Below, piece after piece: positions 15,039 through 64,000 of a DNA stretch of 64,000 nt (positions within the stretch are counted from its first letter, which is position 1; every line of letters begins with the position of its first letter). The notes under the pieces are model-generated. The model had not been told where the DNA came from and ran no database searches. It saw only the letters and a program-made list of their open reading frames with translations. The stretch spans positions 1 through 64,000 of the forward strand of contig JAPOVD010000006.1 in assembly GCA_026708305.1 (NCBI GenBank). The letters are read 5' to 3'. The DNA is from Nitrososphaerota archaeon. GTDB lineage: Archaea; Thermoproteota; Nitrososphaeria; Nitrososphaerales; Nitrosopumilaceae. The position numbers and the translations under genes were made by a program.

Positions 15039-15082
15039 AATTTAATATTAATTACTTTTGTAATTGTATATTTGTTTGTTTA

Positions 15083-15169
15083 TGCCGGAGGTGGGTTTCG
15101 AACCCACGACCTCCAGATTATGAGTATTGCCTATTTCTGGCACTCTAGGCCAGGCTGAGCTACTCCGGC
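15083..15169 (-). tRNA. tRNA-Met(CAT), elongator, with an 11-nt intron at a non-canonical site
   Basis: On the minus strand the acceptor stem GCCGGAG pairs with CTCCGGC, the T-arm is GTGGG-TTCGAAA-CCCAC and the discriminator is A without encoded CCA. The sequence matches archaeal elongator tRNA-Met. The anticodon stem is CCAGA/TCTGG with loop CTCATAA, but 11 extra bases interrupt it between positions 30 and 31. Removing them gives a normal 76-nt tRNA. Confidence 0.93.
15126..15136 (-). other. 11-nt tRNA-Met intron within a bulge-helix-bulge-like fold
   Basis: In transcript sense the intron is AAATAGGCAAT. Exon TGCC pairs with intron GGCA to make a 4-bp central helix. The 3-nt bulges AGA and ATA flank it, and GAG/CTC forms the outer helix. 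Cutting after the second base of each bulge restores the anticodon stem exactly. There is no inner intron helix, so this is a relaxed half-BHB form. Confidence 0.8.
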
Positions 15170-15219
15170 ACACGTATTATATTGAACTTAAATAATTTAA
15201 TGATTCTGATACATGTTGT

Positions 15220-58297: not shown

Positions 58298-58963
58298 TTA
58301 TTCATTTAATAATTGTTGTATTTTATTTTCTAAATTATAACCTTGACCAAATATTATCTCTCGTAATCTTGAATTTTTATCTATAATTATAGTTGATGGT
58401 GTCCCTTGTAAAGAAAACAATTCAAATGTTTCAGTAATAAATTCTTTAGATTTTAAATATGTTTTGACATTACTTTTTATTTTATTTTGATATTCTGTTG
58501 GATGTAGATTAAAATCAGGAATTTGGTTATAAATAAAATTGAGAATTCTATTTTCATCTATAATGTTATTATTTTGTTTGATCAAAGAATCCATAGCCAC
58601 CGGAAACGGTATCTTATATTTTAATCTTTTATTATTATCTAGGTAATTGTATTGTTCCAAAATTTTTTTAGTCTCTCCAATCACAATATTTTTTTTTAAT
58701 AACAATTCTAAATTTATTAATGTGTTCTTATCGAAATCTTCAAATGCTGTAGCAATTCCTAATACTGTCAATTTATTAAATTTATATTTATTATATACTT
58801 CTATCACATTTGGTATTCCATATATAAAACATCCTGGACAATTAACTTGAAAAACTTCAATAACTACGACTTTGCCTCTTTCTAAATCTATGTTGGTAGA
58901 ATTTCCTTGAACCCATGATGACACTTTAAAGTTTGGCGCATGTTTACCAATTTGTGCAGACAC
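58298..58963 (-). CDS. Thioredoxin-fold redoxin (TlpA/AhpC-like)
   Basis: The thioredoxin-like fold begins KHAPNFKVSSW and has an active CPGC at C42-C45, then a cis-Pro region in LQGTPSTIIID. The order suggests a TlpA- or peroxiredoxin-like dithiol protein. A central insertion of about 80 Lys/Asn/Ile-rich residues makes it longer (221) than a simple redoxin. No signal peptide is seen. Its partner is unknown. Confidence 0.8.
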   Translation of the reverse strand: MSAQIGKHAPNFKVSSWVQGNSTNIDLERGKVVVIEVFQVNCPGCFIYGIPNVIEVYNKYKFNKLTVLGIATAFEDFDKNTLINLELLLKKNIVIGETKKILEQYNYLDNNKRLKYKIPFPVAMDSLIKQNNNIIDENRILNFIYNQIPDFNLHPTEYQNKIKSNVKTYLKSKEFITETFELFSLQGTPSTIIIDKNSRLREIIFGQGYNLENKIQQLLNE

Positions 58964-59029: not shown

Positions 59030-59515
59030 ATGGATTGTATGAAAAAAAGATTAGAATTATTTACAATCATGGAAATGAAATATGATGATAGCGATGTAGA
59101 ATATTTTAAAAAATTATTGAAAAATGATGATTATGTAATAAGAACTCGAGCTACGTGCATTTTAGCTGATTTTGGATCTAAAGATTTGGTTAAACCAATA
59201 GCTGATGTACTACAAAATGACCCAAACGAACTAGTCAGACACGAAGCTGCTTTTTCATTGGGTCAACTATCATTTACAAATGCAATCAAATATTTACAGA
59301 GTGCTACTGAAAACGATCAGAGTGAATTTGTTAGACATGAAGCTGCTATTGCGTTGGGCGTAATAGGATCTAATATTGCAAAACAAACACTAAACAAAGC
59401 TTTGAATGATGTAAAACGTTCAGTACGTGAATCAGCTCTTATTGCTTTATCTAACATAGAATATGTGGAAAGATTATGCCATAATAAAAAATTTTCTAAA
59501 CTTGTAGGTGGTTAA
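59030..59515 (+). CDS. HEAT-repeat protein resembling one half of deoxyhypusine hydroxylase
   Basis: The 161-residue protein is all helical HEAT repeats. It carries two His-Glu pairs, H71-E72 (VRHEAAFSLGQL) and H103-E104 (VRHEAAIALGVIG), spaced 32 residues, then VRESALIAL and IEYVE. Deoxyhypusine hydroxylase (DOHH) has two similar halves, each with two HE pairs about 33 apart that bind the two irons, and VRES-like endings. This gene has one half, so a homodimer could rebuild a four-HE site. A plain PBS-lyase-type HEAT scaffold is the alternative. It is convergent with rad50, overlapping by 4 bases. Confidence 0.75.
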   Translation: MDCMKKRLELFTIMEMKYDDSDVEYFKKLLKNDDYVIRTRATCILADFGSKDLVKPIADVLQNDPNELVRHEAAFSLGQLSFTNAIKYLQSATENDQSEFVRHEAAIALGVIGSNIAKQTLNKALNDVKRSVRESALIALSNIEYVERLCHNKKFSKLVGG

Positions 59516-61593
59516 AAAGACGTAACATTTGAACCATTTGAATCTTTTGAAAATTTGTAAATTGTATCTATGTCAGCATTCTCAAATATTTCACTATCAT
59601 GGGTTATTATTATTAATTGCATAGATTCTTTTAATTTTGTAGTTTCTGATAGTTGTGAAAAAATATCTACTAATGATTTACGTCTTTCTTCATCCAAATA
59701 CATAGTAGGTTCATCCAATATGACGCAATTCAAATTTGATATTCCTAACATGTTCATGATTGATAATCTCAATGCAATAGCTATACTTACTTGTTCTCCT
59801 CCGCTAAGAGAGTCAATTTCTAATACGTCATTTTTGGAATAACATGTAATTGACATTTCATGAGTTTTTTCTGATATTTCTATTCTATTCACATTTATAT
59901 TTAATAATGATAAATAATCTGATGCTTTTCTTGAGATCATATTTAATACCCATGATCTTAGACTAGTTGCAACAACTCCTTCTCTATTAAATATTTTGTC
60001 ATGCATGGTGTCTATCATGTTAATATATTTCTTCACAAAATTAAGCTCAAGAAGTAAATTATTTATTTCGTTTATTTCTTTGTTTGCATTATTTAATTTT
60101 GATATAGTAGCACCTAATTCTTGATTAATTTCATTTAACAATGATTGTTTTTTCTTAAATTCCTTTTTTAATACAGAAAATCTTTCAAAATCAAACATTT
60201 GTACTTGTTGTTCTAATTCCCTTATTTTTATACACAAATCTCTCGTATGAAAGTCAATAGATGCCATTTCAAAGAGTTTATTAGATTTTAAATCATGTGT
60301 TATTTTATTTATATTTTTTTGATATGTATTATATTCTTCTTGCATTTGATTCATATCTTTGTAGCTACGTATAGAATGTGCTGATAATATAGCTTCAGCT
60401 TTCATTATGTTTTGTAATTCCATTTCATTAGTACGATTAATTTTTTCATATTCTAATTTTTTTGTATGTAAAATGTTCATCACGTTATTTATTTTATAAA
60501 TTTCATACTTGATGTATTTTTCATGAAATAAAGGATTAAGTTTTTTAATTGTTGAATAACAAATAGGACATTGGTTATTATTTAATTTTAATTTTTTTGT
60601 TAGCATCATATGTTCATTAAATATGTTTTCTTTATACTGGAATTCATTCATTTTTGTAATAATTTTTCCTAATATGCGTTTATTGTTCTTCATGTCGAAT
60701 TCTATTTTCGTTTTATTATTTAGTTGTTTTAATTGCTCGTTACAAATTTTTAGTTTCTGTTCTTTTTCATATATTCTTTCTTTAGTTGATGTTAGAAATG
60801 TATTGACATAATTGATCAATTCTGATTTTCTACTTTTTAATTCTTGGAATTTAGTCATTTTGTAAGTTTCATTTTCAATAGTTGTTTGTATTTTTTGTAT
60901 ATATGTATCATATAGTAATTTTTTATCTATTAATGATTTTTTTAATGGTGTTATTGTTTTTATAATATTATTTACATCTTCTTTTTTTTTACTTAATATG
61001 TTGATATGTGTATCATCATAGCCATTACTGTTTTGCACACTTTCCCTGAATTTTTTTTTAATTATTCTCATTGCTGATGAAGCAATATCTAGTTTGTTTA
61101 TTCCAATTAATGAATTAATTATTTCTTTGAATTCTTTTGGTTTCGATTTTATTATTGCATTCAATTCTCCTTGTTGAACAATCGAAGTAATTTTTAGTTT
61201 CGTAAAGCCCATTCCTAATATAGATTCTATTTGTTTCGTCATTGATTCTCCAAATTGTTTTCTTTCTCCTGAAACTAATAATAATTCTTCATTTTCATTT
61301 ATTTCTATTAAATGAGAGTACATCTCTCCATTTCTATCAATTTTTCTTATTGCTTCGTATGTTTTTCTATTTGTGGAAAACTGTATTTTTACGTATGCTT
61401 GATTGCATCCTTTTTTGATTAAGCTTTTATTTGATTTTCTAACATGCTTTCCAAATAATGCAAACGTTATGGCATCAATTATGCTTGATTTTCCTGATCC
61501 GTTGTGTCCGATAAATATTGTTAACCCTTTATCAAATTTTAATTTTGTAAATGAATGTGACAAAAAATTATTTAATTCTATTGCTTGTATCAT
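59512..61593 (-). CDS. rad50: DNA double-strand break repair ATPase Rad50 (short form)
   Basis: Rad50 clamps DNA ends with Mre11. Walker A GHNGSGKSS is at residues 29-37. The coiled-coil arms flank the zinc hook CPIC at C342-C345. Near the C-terminus are the signature DSLSGGEQVSIA and Walker B VILDEPTMYLD. At 693 residues it is shorter than the usual 850-900 of archaeal Rad50, mainly in the coiled coils. The start overlaps mre11 by 26 bases. Confidence 0.94.
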   Translation of the reverse strand: MIQAIELNNFLSHSFTKLKFDKGLTIFIGHNGSGKSSIIDAITFALFGKHVRKSNKSLIKKGCNQAYVKIQFSTNRKTYEAIRKIDRNGEMYSHLIEINENEELLLVSGERKQFGESMTKQIESILGMGFTKLKITSIVQQGELNAIIKSKPKEFKEIINSLIGINKLDIASSAMRIIKKKFRESVQNSNGYDDTHINILSKKKEDVNNIIKTITPLKKSLIDKKLLYDTYIQKIQTTIENETYKMTKFQELKSRKSELINYVNTFLTSTKERIYEKEQKLKICNEQLKQLNNKTKIEFDMKNNKRILGKIITKMNEFQYKENIFNEHMMLTKKLKLNNNQCPICYSTIKKLNPLFHEKYIKYEIYKINNVMNILHTKKLEYEKINRTNEMELQNIMKAEAILSAHSIRSYKDMNQMQEEYNTYQKNINKITHDLKSNKLFEMASIDFHTRDLCIKIRELEQQVQMFDFERFSVLKKEFKKKQSLLNEINQELGATISKLNNANKEINEINNLLLELNFVKKYINMIDTMHDKIFNREGVVATSLRSWVLNMISRKASDYLSLLNINVNRIEISEKTHEMSITCYSKNDVLEIDSLSGGEQVSIAIALRLSIMNMLGISNLNCVILDEPTMYLDEERRKSLVDIFSQLSETTKLKESMQLIIITHDSEIFENADIDTIYKFSKDSNGSNVTSF

Positions 61594-62725
61594 TATTACT
61601 CTTAAATTTTGTATAGTTTTCTGATATTAGGATTTGAGCTTCTTCTAGATTATTTATAGAAAGTAAGGGCAATAATTCATTTATTGCAAATTTTGCAATT
61701 TCTTCATTAGTGGATTTGATTGCTAATTTTAGTAATTCTTCGTCTACACTAACTGGTTTATCATTATATATCGTTGCTCCATAATCTTCATGATTTTCCA
61801 TTATTTTCCAAAAACAAAGTAGTGCGCACTTGAAAATTTCAGATATATGTTTTTGAATAACGTCATTTTCTATTTTTTTACCAGTTATTTTTAATTCAAC
61901 AATAGGTTTTAAATAATAATTATTGATTTTTTTTACGATCTCATGAATCGAAGTAGATAATTCATCATAAGATACACTAAAAGACATTTGAGGTCTTGTA
62001 TCTAATTTTATCCAATTTACTTCTACTTCTTTTTTTGAAGCATCAACTTCACAAAAACCTTTTTTTGTATTTTTTACTCCTTCGCTACTTGTTAATTCGA
62101 TTGAACCTGGATATGATATAGGTCCATGTAAATGATTCCATTTTTTTATATATCTATCATGTAAATGCCCCATTGCGTAATAAGTAAAATTGTTTGGAAG
62201 ATCTGTTGAATTTAATTCACCTGAAAATTTATTTATTTCATTAATAGCTTGATGCATTACTAATATTTTATGTCCGCTGTATCGTGATGCTATTAGATTC
62301 ACTTCGTTAAATTTTTTTTCATAGTATGACATTTCGTTTTTACGAATTTTATCAAAACCGGTTAACATTATATCTTTATAATATATTGGTTTTCCATTGC
62401 CAATATATCTAGAAAAACCAAGATTGTTATAAACAAAAGGTATTGGTGTAGATCTAATTCTACTTATGTCATGCTCTCCTAAAATAAAAAAAGATTCTAT
62501 ATTGTTATTTTTTAATAATCTCAATTCGTTAGCTAGATGAATCATTGCAGTTCCTGTAGTATTGGGTGTATGAAAAATATCTCCAGAAAAAATAACAAAA
62601 TCTACATGATCTTTTATGGATATGTCTATAGATTGTTTGAACGAGTTATAAATATCATTTTCTCTCTCTTTTAAACCATATTGAATCAAGCCTAAATGTA
62701 AATCTGAAATATGTGAAAATAACAT
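61568..62725 (-). CDS. mre11: DNA double-strand break repair nuclease Mre11
   Basis: The metallophosphoesterase domain is seen in SHISDLHLGL, FVIFSGDIFHT, ILGEHDISRI, MHQAINEI and AMGHLHDR, together giving the two-metal site. The C-terminal segment would bind Rad50. The length of 385 residues is normal. It is flanked by rad50 and herA with overlaps of 26 bases and 1 base. Confidence 0.94.
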   Translation of the reverse strand: MLFSHISDLHLGLIQYGLKERENDIYNSFKQSIDISIKDHVDFVIFSGDIFHTPNTTGTAMIHLANELRLLKNNNIESFFILGEHDISRIRSTPIPFVYNNLGFSRYIGNGKPIYYKDIMLTGFDKIRKNEMSYYEKKFNEVNLIASRYSGHKILVMHQAINEINKFSGELNSTDLPNNFTYYAMGHLHDRYIKKWNHLHGPISYPGSIELTSSEGVKNTKKGFCEVDASKKEVEVNWIKLDTRPQMSFSVSYDELSTSIHEIVKKINNYYLKPIVELKITGKKIENDVIQKHISEIFKCALLCFWKIMENHEDYGATIYNDKPVSVDEELLKLAIKSTNEEIAKFAINELLPLLSINNLEEAQILISENYTKFKSNNDTSNRIK

Positions 62726-64000
62726 TATTGACTAAATAATAAATCTTTGTTAATAAGTTCTTGTGCATCCTTTATAGCTTCATTAAAACGTGTCATTTTT
62801 TTCCATTCCCCTACTGCGTCTGGATCTGAACCAGTGATTTTTTCTTTTGCTTCGTGTATGTGAATTAAAGTTGGTAGATTCACGCATTGGCCTACTAAGA
62901 TTGCATCTCCCACATTTAATGAAGTTAATTGTGAAATAAGATCTTTGCTTATTGATTCTACTGCATATGCTATTTGCCTTTGATCATCTTCTTGAATTAT
63001 TTTCATTATTGCAAATGAACCAATTTGACTTAATACATTTGAATCTATATTTCTAGGTCTTTGTGATACTATTCCTATTCCGAGACCGAATTTTCTTCCT
63101 TCTCTAGCAATTTTTGAAGCCCAGTATTTAGCATGCGTATCTTCAAATTTCGGTATAAATACATGAGCTTCTTCAATTATTACAAAAACAGGTGAACTAA
63201 ACCTAAATTTTCTATGTTTTTTTTTAGAATTGTTAACTATTGTTGATAATTTTTTGTCTAATAGTAATTCTTGCAAATAATAAGCTACTACCACATTAGC
63301 TTGTTTCTCACTAAATCCGGAAATATTTAAAATGTTTATTCTAAATTCTTTAATTAAACTAATAGGATCTATTATGTCCGGATCCAATATGTCTGAAAAC
63401 CTGTGCCGCGCATCGTCTATTTTATCGCATACTCTATCTGCGGAATGTCTATCTTCTTTTCTTTCTGGATTTGCACCAACAAATTCTACCTGCTTGTATA
63501 ATTCATTCCAAAATTCCTTAGATTCTTTTACATTTTGTGTAAATGCAAGTCTTAGAATTCTTTGTTGTACATCAGCATTCTCTCTGATCTCCAAAATATC
63601 AGCTAAAGTACTTGAATCCAATAATCTTGGATTTATCTTTGCATCCATAATATTCATTTTTTTTATATTCAAATTATTGTAGTCGTTATGATAATCAAAA
63701 ATTATTAACGTGCCATTCAATTTTGCTATTTCTTTAGCTATTATTGCTATCAAATTGCTTTTTCCCATTCCTGTCATCGCTAATATTCCAAAATGCCTAG
63801 TTACTATTTTGTTAATATTTATCTTCAATTCTATTTTGGGATTACGAAGTAATGTTCCGATCTTTGCCCAAGATGAATTAGCAGGGTTAAATACATCTTC
63901 CAAATCATATTTTGTAGCTTCTAATATCTGTGTACCGGGAAATGGAGGTATTGATGGTATTACAACATTACCTTTCTTCAAACCTGATAAAAATCCTAAA
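62725..64000 (-). CDS. herA: DNA double-strand break repair helicase HerA (5' end outside window)
   Basis: HerA is a hexameric ATPase that pairs with the nuclease NurA in end resection. Walker A is MTGMGKSNL and Walker B is VFVIIEEAHVF; GREGRKFGLGIGIVSQRP-like residues and the arginine-rich region follow. The frame is open to the right edge (LGFLSGLKKGN before residue 1 of the visible ATG/TTG candidates), so the N-terminal HAS barrel is cut off by the window end. It precedes mre11 with a 1-base overlap. NurA is not next to rad50 here. Confidence 0.92.
   Translation of the reverse strand, partial: LGFLSGLKKGNVVIPSIPPFPGTQILEATKYDLEDVFNPANSSWAKIGTLLRNPKIELKININKIVTRHFGILAMTGMGKSNLIAIIAKEIAKLNGTLIIFDYHNDYNNLNIKKMNIMDAKINPRLLDSSTLADILEIRENADVQQRILRLAFTQNVKESKEFWNELYKQVEFVGANPERKEDRHSADRVCDKIDDARHRFSDILDPDIIDPISLIKEFRINILNISGFSEKQANVVVAYYLQELLLDKKLSTIVNNSKKKHRKFRFSSPVFVIIEEAHVFIPKFEDTHAKYWASKIAREGRKFGLGIGIVSQRPRNIDSNVLSQIGSFAIMKIIQEDDQRQIAYAVESISKDLISQLTSLNVGDAILVGQCVNLPTLIHIHEAKEKITGSDPDAVGEWKKMTRFNEAIKDAQELINKDLLFSQ

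What the first reader, a model, noticed from the sequence alone, without database searches (positions are those of the whole stretch)
59030..59515. HEAT protein with two His-Glu pairs: a possible half-size deoxyhypusine hydroxylase
Seen: HE pairs at residues 71-72 and 103-104 in VRHEAA-type helices, spaced 32, followed by VRES and IEYVE. Known: DOHH is a two-lobed HEAT protein with HE pairs at the same kind of spacing and like surroundings, and most archaea lack a recognised DOHH although hypusine or deoxyhypusine occurs in their aIF5A. Inference: a homodimer of this 161-residue chain could rebuild the di-iron site.
Basis: partly seen in the sequence, partly recalled or inferred. Interest (0 to 1): 0.72.

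Follow-up and report, generated by a model that had tools for sequence, protein, structure and literature searches.

The report
Candidate half-size archaeal hypusine hydroxylase
A small helical-repeat protein in ammonia-oxidizing and related archaea carries, never varying, the same metal-binding His-Glu pairs as each half of the eukaryotic enzyme that finishes hypusine on a translation factor, so it is a concrete candidate for an archaeal enzyme that has been missing.

Summary
Window 59030-59515 (+) encodes a 161-aa HEAT protein with His-Glu pairs at 71-72 and 103-104. In 138 distinct orthologous sequences these four residues never vary. A profile of the family aligns once to each lobe of human deoxyhypusine hydroxylase (DOHH), about 70 bits each, with all four DOHH His-Glu pairs in register. 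DOHH is the best natural match in the PDB by sequence and in the Foldseek list. A HEAT family of the same size from the same genomes lacks the pairs and does not find DOHH. Of 94 Thermoproteota genomes with the gene, 93 have a heme-copper oxidase. In Archaeon HR01 it sits beside two deoxyhypusine synthase genes. The organism has DHS and an aIF5A with the modifiable lysine loop. I propose a homodimeric di-iron deoxyhypusine hydroxylase, a half-size DOHH. The dimer, the iron, the activity and the presence of hypusine are untested. A second archaeal family (B) shares the pairs, many aerobic relatives lack the gene, and DHS linkage is seen in only 3 of 36 genomes. Hence a new variant of a known kind, unproven.

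The parts
59030..59515 (+). Family A gene: 161-aa single-lobe HEAT protein, candidate half-size deoxyhypusine hydroxylase
59240..59245 (+). codons of H71-E72, aligned to DOHH H56-E57 and H207-E208
   Evidence: 139 of 139 rows
59336..59341 (+). codons of H103-E104, aligned to DOHH H89-E90 and H240-E241
   Evidence: 139 of 139 rows
59261..59266 (+). codons of G78-Q79 (LGQ after the first HE; both DOHH lobes have HExxYxLGQ)
   Evidence: invariant in 139 of 139 rows; aligned
59141..59149 (+). codons of R38-x-R40 (RxRA; both DOHH lobes have RxRA); R38 139 of 139, R40 130 of 139 rows
59423..59434 (+). VRES (132-135), aligned to VRES of the DOHH C-lobe; V132 and S135 invariant, R133 and E134 not
59492..59512 (+). 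conserved C-terminal tail, FSKLVGG here, mostly F-A-K-L-T-G-G in relatives; low model confidence at 152-158

Best explanation
The gene encodes a half-size deoxyhypusine hydroxylase. Two identical chains, each equal to one DOHH lobe, pair face to face so that H71, H103 and E104 of each chain hold one iron of a di-iron centre. E72 (with E104) of both chains binds the deoxyhypusine side chain of aIF5A. The centre activates O2 and hydroxylates deoxyhypusine, made by DHS, to hypusine. Shown by computation: single-lobe fold, invariant HE pairs in register with both DOHH lobes, association with aerobic genomes, DHS beside the gene in one lineage, DHS and aIF5A in this genome. Inferred: dimer, iron, substrate and reaction. 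My split: redox-metal HE-HEAT enzyme about 0.85; deoxyhypusine-aIF5A as substrate about 0.6; homodimer about 0.6.
For: The profile aligns to DOHH N-lobe (69.7 bits) and C-lobe (70.0 bits) with all HE pairs matched; with the eight catalytic residues masked 51 bits per lobe remain. DOHH E = 3e-38, against 7e-11 for the next natural PDB protein (6veh is a designed trimer by its title). The four residues are invariant in 138 sequences. AF2 model pLDDT 93.0; Foldseek to 4d4z rmsd 1.6 over 126 columns, 31% identity, the only natural protein that I recognise among the 39 matches at E <= 0.001. COX1 in 93 of 94 gene-positive genomes against 80 of 303 without; within the order the gene is in 10 of 17 COX1+ and 0 of 7 COX1- genomes (p = 0.019, relatedness not corrected). 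DHS pair next to the gene in Archaeon HR01, DHS 5 kb away in two Caldarchaeum-genus genomes. G000 has a canonical-looking DHS and aIF5A with a SKPGKHGAAK loop. Literature on DOHH residues: PMC9117371 (passages).
Against: DHS lies within 6 kb in only 3 of 36 gene-positive genomes, all in one family; P of at least one genus within 200 b by chance 0.046, of two genera within 5.1 kb 0.039. No aIF5A adjacency was seen. 80 COX1+ genomes lack the gene. Sulfolobus solfataricus makes hypusine (PMC6105217, passages), and I could not show the gene there, so another hydroxylase may exist. Family B carries the same HE pairs, so the pairs alone do not fix the substrate. In Nitrosopumilaceae the gene lies by rad50-mre11-herA, not by hypusine genes. 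The VIA alignment ranks many designed HEAT proteins above DOHH (Z 16.2).
Confidence: 0.58

Rival explanations
1. A di-iron (or other metal) HEAT oxygenase of the DOHH kind that acts on another substrate, perhaps another protein or a small amine.
For: Family B, also DOHH-like, shows that HE-HEAT proteins diversified in these archaea. The gene is patchy among aerobes. No aIF5A adjacency.
Against: DOHH is the only characterised HEAT di-iron hydroxylase known to me (recalled). DHS adjacency in HR01. A keeps LGQ and RxRA of both DOHH lobes, B does not keep LGQ.
Confidence: 0.25
2. A metal-binding but non-oxygenase HEAT protein, for example a zinc- or iron-bound scaffold or regulator, possibly linked to the Rad50-Mre11-HerA repair genes beside it.
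For: Of 95 loci holding family A, rad50 was found in 50, mre11 in 44, herA in 40; a rad50-like gene also lies near it in L034 and L089 from other families.
Against: The genes are convergent in the window, so not one transcript. The linkage is absent in most other families seen. It does not explain the oxidase association or the DOHH match.
Confidence: 0.12
3. An ordinary EZ-HEAT (PBS-lyase-like) adaptor whose HE pairs are lineage noise.
For: Generic HEAT models match; alphaRep designs score as high as or higher than DOHH.
Against: HE invariant in 138 sequences. Family C from the same genomes, same size and repeats, has no HE pair in 6 of 6 loci, and one member finds no DOHH in the PDB at E <= 0.1. 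NCBIfam lyase cut-offs are far from met (38.6 against 300).
Confidence: 0.05

Closest known systems
Human deoxyhypusine hydroxylase (DOHH, PDB 4d4z / 4d50)
   Same: HEAT lobe with two HE pairs in register, RxRA, HExx(Y/F)xLGQ, VRHE-x-A-x-ALG; 31% identity over 126 Foldseek columns
   Different: One lobe of 161 aa instead of two lobes in one chain; HE spacing 32 instead of 33; no linker; function untested
alphaRep designed HEAT proteins / EZ-HEAT consensus (Pfam HEAT_2, HEAT_PBS)
   Same: Same hairpin repeat (VRxxAAxALG)
   Different: No conserved HE pairs; by recall the alphaRep libraries randomise these positions
NblB, CpcE/CpcF, E. coli YibA and other PBS-lyase-like proteins
   Same: EZ-HEAT fold
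   Different: Scores far under NCBIfam cut-offs; YibA only 42.5 bits to the family profile against 134.1 for DOHH
Family B of these archaea (unnamed, about 170 aa)
   Same: HE pairs 32 apart in the same helix register; DOHH is its best PDB sequence match
   Different: No LGQ, different first repeats; patchy, absent from this genome

Membership tests
Deoxyhypusine hydroxylase (eukaryotic, two-lobed) | Two HEAT lobes, eight hairpins, in one chain of about 300 aa | tested here: not met
   161 aa; one lobe; the 138 family A sequences are 162-237 aa counted from stop to stop
Deoxyhypusine hydroxylase (eukaryotic, two-lobed) | HE pairs at the positions of H56-E57, H89-E90, H207-E208, H240-E241 (PMC9117371 passages) | tested here: met
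   Two pairs per chain, in register with both lobes, invariant. The full set of four needs a dimer, which was not tested
Deoxyhypusine hydroxylase (eukaryotic, two-lobed) | Glycine of LGQ reported for substrate binding (the review prints G65 and G214; by my count of the chain G63 and G214) | tested here: met
   G78 139 of 139 rows; weak test, since glycine is also HEAT consensus
Deoxyhypusine hydroxylase (eukaryotic, two-lobed) | Di-iron centre, stable peroxo intermediate | not testable with these tools
   none
Deoxyhypusine hydroxylase (eukaryotic, two-lobed) | Hydroxylates deoxyhypusine on IF5A | not testable with these tools
   Substrate pathway present: DHS and aIF5A in G000
Deoxyhypusine hydroxylase (eukaryotic, two-lobed) | O2 available in the host | tested here: met
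   COX1 in G000 and in 93 of 94 gene-positive genomes
Half-size DOHH as a homodimer | HE residues of two chains converge | not testable with these tools
   No complex prediction, no coordinates handed out
Phycobilisome/PBS-lyase HEAT families (NblB, CpcE, CpcF, YibA) | Curated NCBIfam score cut-off | tested here: not met
   Best 38.6 bits, cut-off 300
Pfam HEAT_2 (PF13646) | Gathering score 27.7 | tested here: met
   81.9 bits

The most novel reading that the evidence does not exclude
Hypusine hydroxylation exists outside eukaryotes as a homodimer of half-size chains in aerobic Nitrososphaeria and Caldarchaeum relatives, and eukaryotic DOHH is the fused, doubled form of such a chain. Bolder still, since family B resembles the DOHH N-lobe more than the C-lobe (47.1 against 27.3 bits), the two eukaryotic lobes could go back to a pair of archaeal half-size proteins; the tree, which joins the two lobes at 100/98, speaks against that part.
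Probability: 0.42. Interest if true: 0.87.

Novelty: new variant of a known kind. Interest (0 to 1): 0.76.

Why it matters
A 2018 study of Sulfolobus aIF5A states that no DOHH homologues were known in archaeal genomes and that the archaeal hypusination pathway remained unsolved (PMC6105217, passages and section 21). This gives a named, small, conserved gene that can be expressed and assayed at once, with a built-in negative control (family C) and a specificity test (family B). If true it shows that the second step of hypusine synthesis is not a eukaryotic invention in kind, suggests how a two-lobed enzyme arose from a one-lobed one, and gives many ammonia-oxidizing archaea an oxygen-dependent step in translation.

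Tried and rejected
Gene order as general support: outside Nitrosopumilaceae the neighbours of family A differ from family to family. Only the HR01 and Caldarchaeum loci put DHS near it. The rad50/redoxin neighbourhood was considered as a functional hint and set aside because the genes are convergent or divergent.

A/B heterodimer as the rule: rejected, because G000 has no family B gene; its only match to the B profile is family A itself.

Tree placement of DOHH inside A or B: the two DOHH lobes join each other (100/98), but their place is unresolved and long branches meet.

Origin outside the phylum could not be examined: the one genome-contig scan kept 80 of 324 relatives, and the titles listed are Nitrosopumilus-type, Nitrososphaera-type, Caldarchaeum, HR01 or unspecific archaeal and Thermoproteota records. 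Plasmids gave 1 record for the window protein and 2 for DOHH, all partial. PHROGs: no match at 0.01.

Literature on an archaeal DOHH: searches (PMC open-licence library, no preprints) listed none. I saw search listings only, except passages of PMC6105217 and PMC9117371 and one section of the first.

A regular expression had the wrong spacing and flagged all of family A; the column counts of the same call are the valid result.

Full report
What is there. Window 59030-59515 (+) is a 161-aa ORF with HE at residues 71-72 and 103-104, 32 apart, then VRES and IEYVE. Pfam sees HEAT repeats only (HEAT_2 81.9 bits). NCBIfam gives no model near its cut-off.

Conservation. 40 of 61 related genomes have a full-length or near full-length ortholog (E <= 1.6e-27; 45 of 61 at E <= 0.001). 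Together with other loci this gave 138 distinct family A sequences down to 36% identity to the window protein (identities). H71, E72, H103, E104, R38, R70, G78, Q79 and R102 are the same in 139 of 139 aligned rows (the window row repeats one sequence), while the positions that correspond to HE in repeats 2 and 5 vary. Sequences under 150 bits were dropped first: 16 of family B and 23 others, including fragments of broken or N-masked family A genes.

Match to DOHH. The profile of 25 sequences finds human DOHH at E = 3e-38; the next natural PDB protein, a proteasome subunit, is at 7.2e-11 and YibA at 4.8e-10, while designed HEAT proteins (alphaRep, 6veh) score from above to below DOHH. The broader profile A2 aligns once to each DOHH lobe, 69.7 and 70.0 bits, placing 71-72 on 56-57 and 207-208, and 103-104 on 89-90 and 240-241. 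Masking the eight DOHH residues leaves 51.2 and 51.6 bits, so the likeness is not only the HE pairs. The AF2 model is confident (pLDDT 93.0, pTM 0.86); both HE pairs are residues five and six of the helices 67-80 and 99-112. Foldseek: 4d4z rmsd 1.6 over 126 columns, 31% identity; the other matches at E <= 0.001 are designed or engineered HEAT and armadillo proteins by title, by molecule name, or by recall. VIA-align: Z 16.2, rmsd 3.3, 142 aligned, below about 20 designed HEAT proteins and above adaptins, CpcE/CpcF and YibA.

Controls. A third short HEAT family (C) from the same genomes has the same repeats but no HE pair in 6 of 6 loci (one stray HE in L242), and one member finds 24 PDB sequences at E <= 0.1, none of them DOHH. 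Among 65 HEAT motifs of the ORFs set aside, two read HE; a further look found VRHE only in three fragments of family A itself.

Which genomes. In 397 Thermoproteota genomes of at least 85% completeness, 154 match at E <= 0.001, of which I counted 94 strong ones (E <= 5.5e-51). COX1 (173 of 397 at E <= 0.001, 171 over the cut-off) is present in 93 of the 94 and in 80 of the other 303 (the exception, G420, is a draft of 95% completeness). Ten of these 94 lie outside the four ammonia-oxidizer-like families f1, f2, f3 and f8, in f10, f18, f31, f45 and f70, and all ten have COX1. Within the order, 10 of 10 gene-positive genomes have COX1, and all 7 COX1-negative ones lack the gene; 7 COX1-positive ones lack a full gene (Fisher p = 0.019). 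These genomes are related, so p values are only a guide. An O2-using enzyme predicts this pattern; it does not prove it, and the 80 aerobes without the gene need another explanation.

Link to hypusine synthesis. G000 has two DHS-family genes, one with the GGGISKHH stretch that I recall as the DHS active-site lysine region, and aIF5A with SKPGKHGAAK. In 40 genomes (36 gene-positive), DHS was found in 39 and aIF5A, with a weak model, in 31. In Archaeon HR01 (G174; locus L083, BEHD01000009.1) the order is DHS1 (+), DHS2 (-), family A (+); the A and DHS2 ORFs are 75 bases apart, divergent. DHS1 passes the NCBIfam deoxyhypusine synthase equivalog (384.3, cut-off 350), and so does the DHS about 5.04 kb from family A in a Caldarchaeum record (376.4). 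In the other 33 gene-positive genomes DHS is farther away or on another contig. Chance gives 0.047 expected genera within 200 b and 0.31 within 5.1 kb among 23 genera, so this is support, not proof.

Family B. Sixteen of 16 short non-A hits carry HE pairs 32 apart. H76, E77, H108 and E109 are invariant in 15 aligned rows (15 of the 16 were given), in the same helix register in a model of pLDDT 94.6. Its best PDB sequence match is DOHH (E 1.9e-20, N-lobe 47.1 and C-lobe 27.3 bits), and 4d4z is second in Foldseek. It lacks LGQ and is strong (E <= 4.4e-41) in 10 of 61 related genomes, not in G000. So HE-HEAT proteins are a small group in these archaea, and substrate cannot be read from HE alone.

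Mechanism proposed. By analogy with the residues given for DOHH in PMC9117371 (passages): H71, H103 and E104 of each chain bind iron, E72 and E104 take part in substrate binding, and two chains make the two-iron site. Shown here: register, invariance, fold of one lobe, company of DHS and oxygen metabolism. Inferred: dimer, iron, oxygen activation, deoxyhypusine as substrate.

Filing. It fails one defining feature of DOHH as known, two lobes in one chain, so it is not filed as a DOHH. It is filed as a DOHH-like half-size protein that probably works like DOHH. No paper on an archaeal DOHH was listed by the searches; preprints were not held.

Noticed in passing
L044-L049, L108-L117 (coordinates): Family B: second short HEAT family in these archaea with invariant HE pairs 32 apart and DOHH as best PDB match; patchy, absent from G000.
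   Followed up: partly
window 59492-59512 and orthologs: Family A ends in a strongly conserved low-confidence tail (mostly F-A-K-L-T-G-G; T and both G in 129 of 139 rows), replaced by other endings such as PRP or PHP in some other families.
   Followed up: no
window 58298-58963 (-) and 59512-63981 (-): Family A lies between a divergent thioredoxin-like gene and convergent rad50, mre11 and herA genes; found near it in 55, 50, 44 and 40 of 95 loci, rad50-like also near it in L034 and L089.
   Followed up: partly
L083:2970-4910; also the f8 and f45 genomes: Two DHS-family genes lie side by side in HR01, in the four f45 genomes and in most of the f8 genomes searched, suggesting two linked steps of polyamine or hypusine chemistry.
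   Followed up: no
L122:5120-5921: In a Caldarchaeum record family A is divergent from a Urm1/SAMP-like gene, below that model's cut-off, and a KEOPS Cgi121 gene.
   Followed up: no
L093, L094, L095, L028: Family A copies that are interrupted or next to N runs in G389, G373 and G004; assembly fault or gene loss not settled.
   Followed up: no
window 15082-15170 (-): ARAGORN reports a tRNA-like gene with a four-base anticodon call (aggc) that Rfam also scores as tRNA.
   Followed up: no
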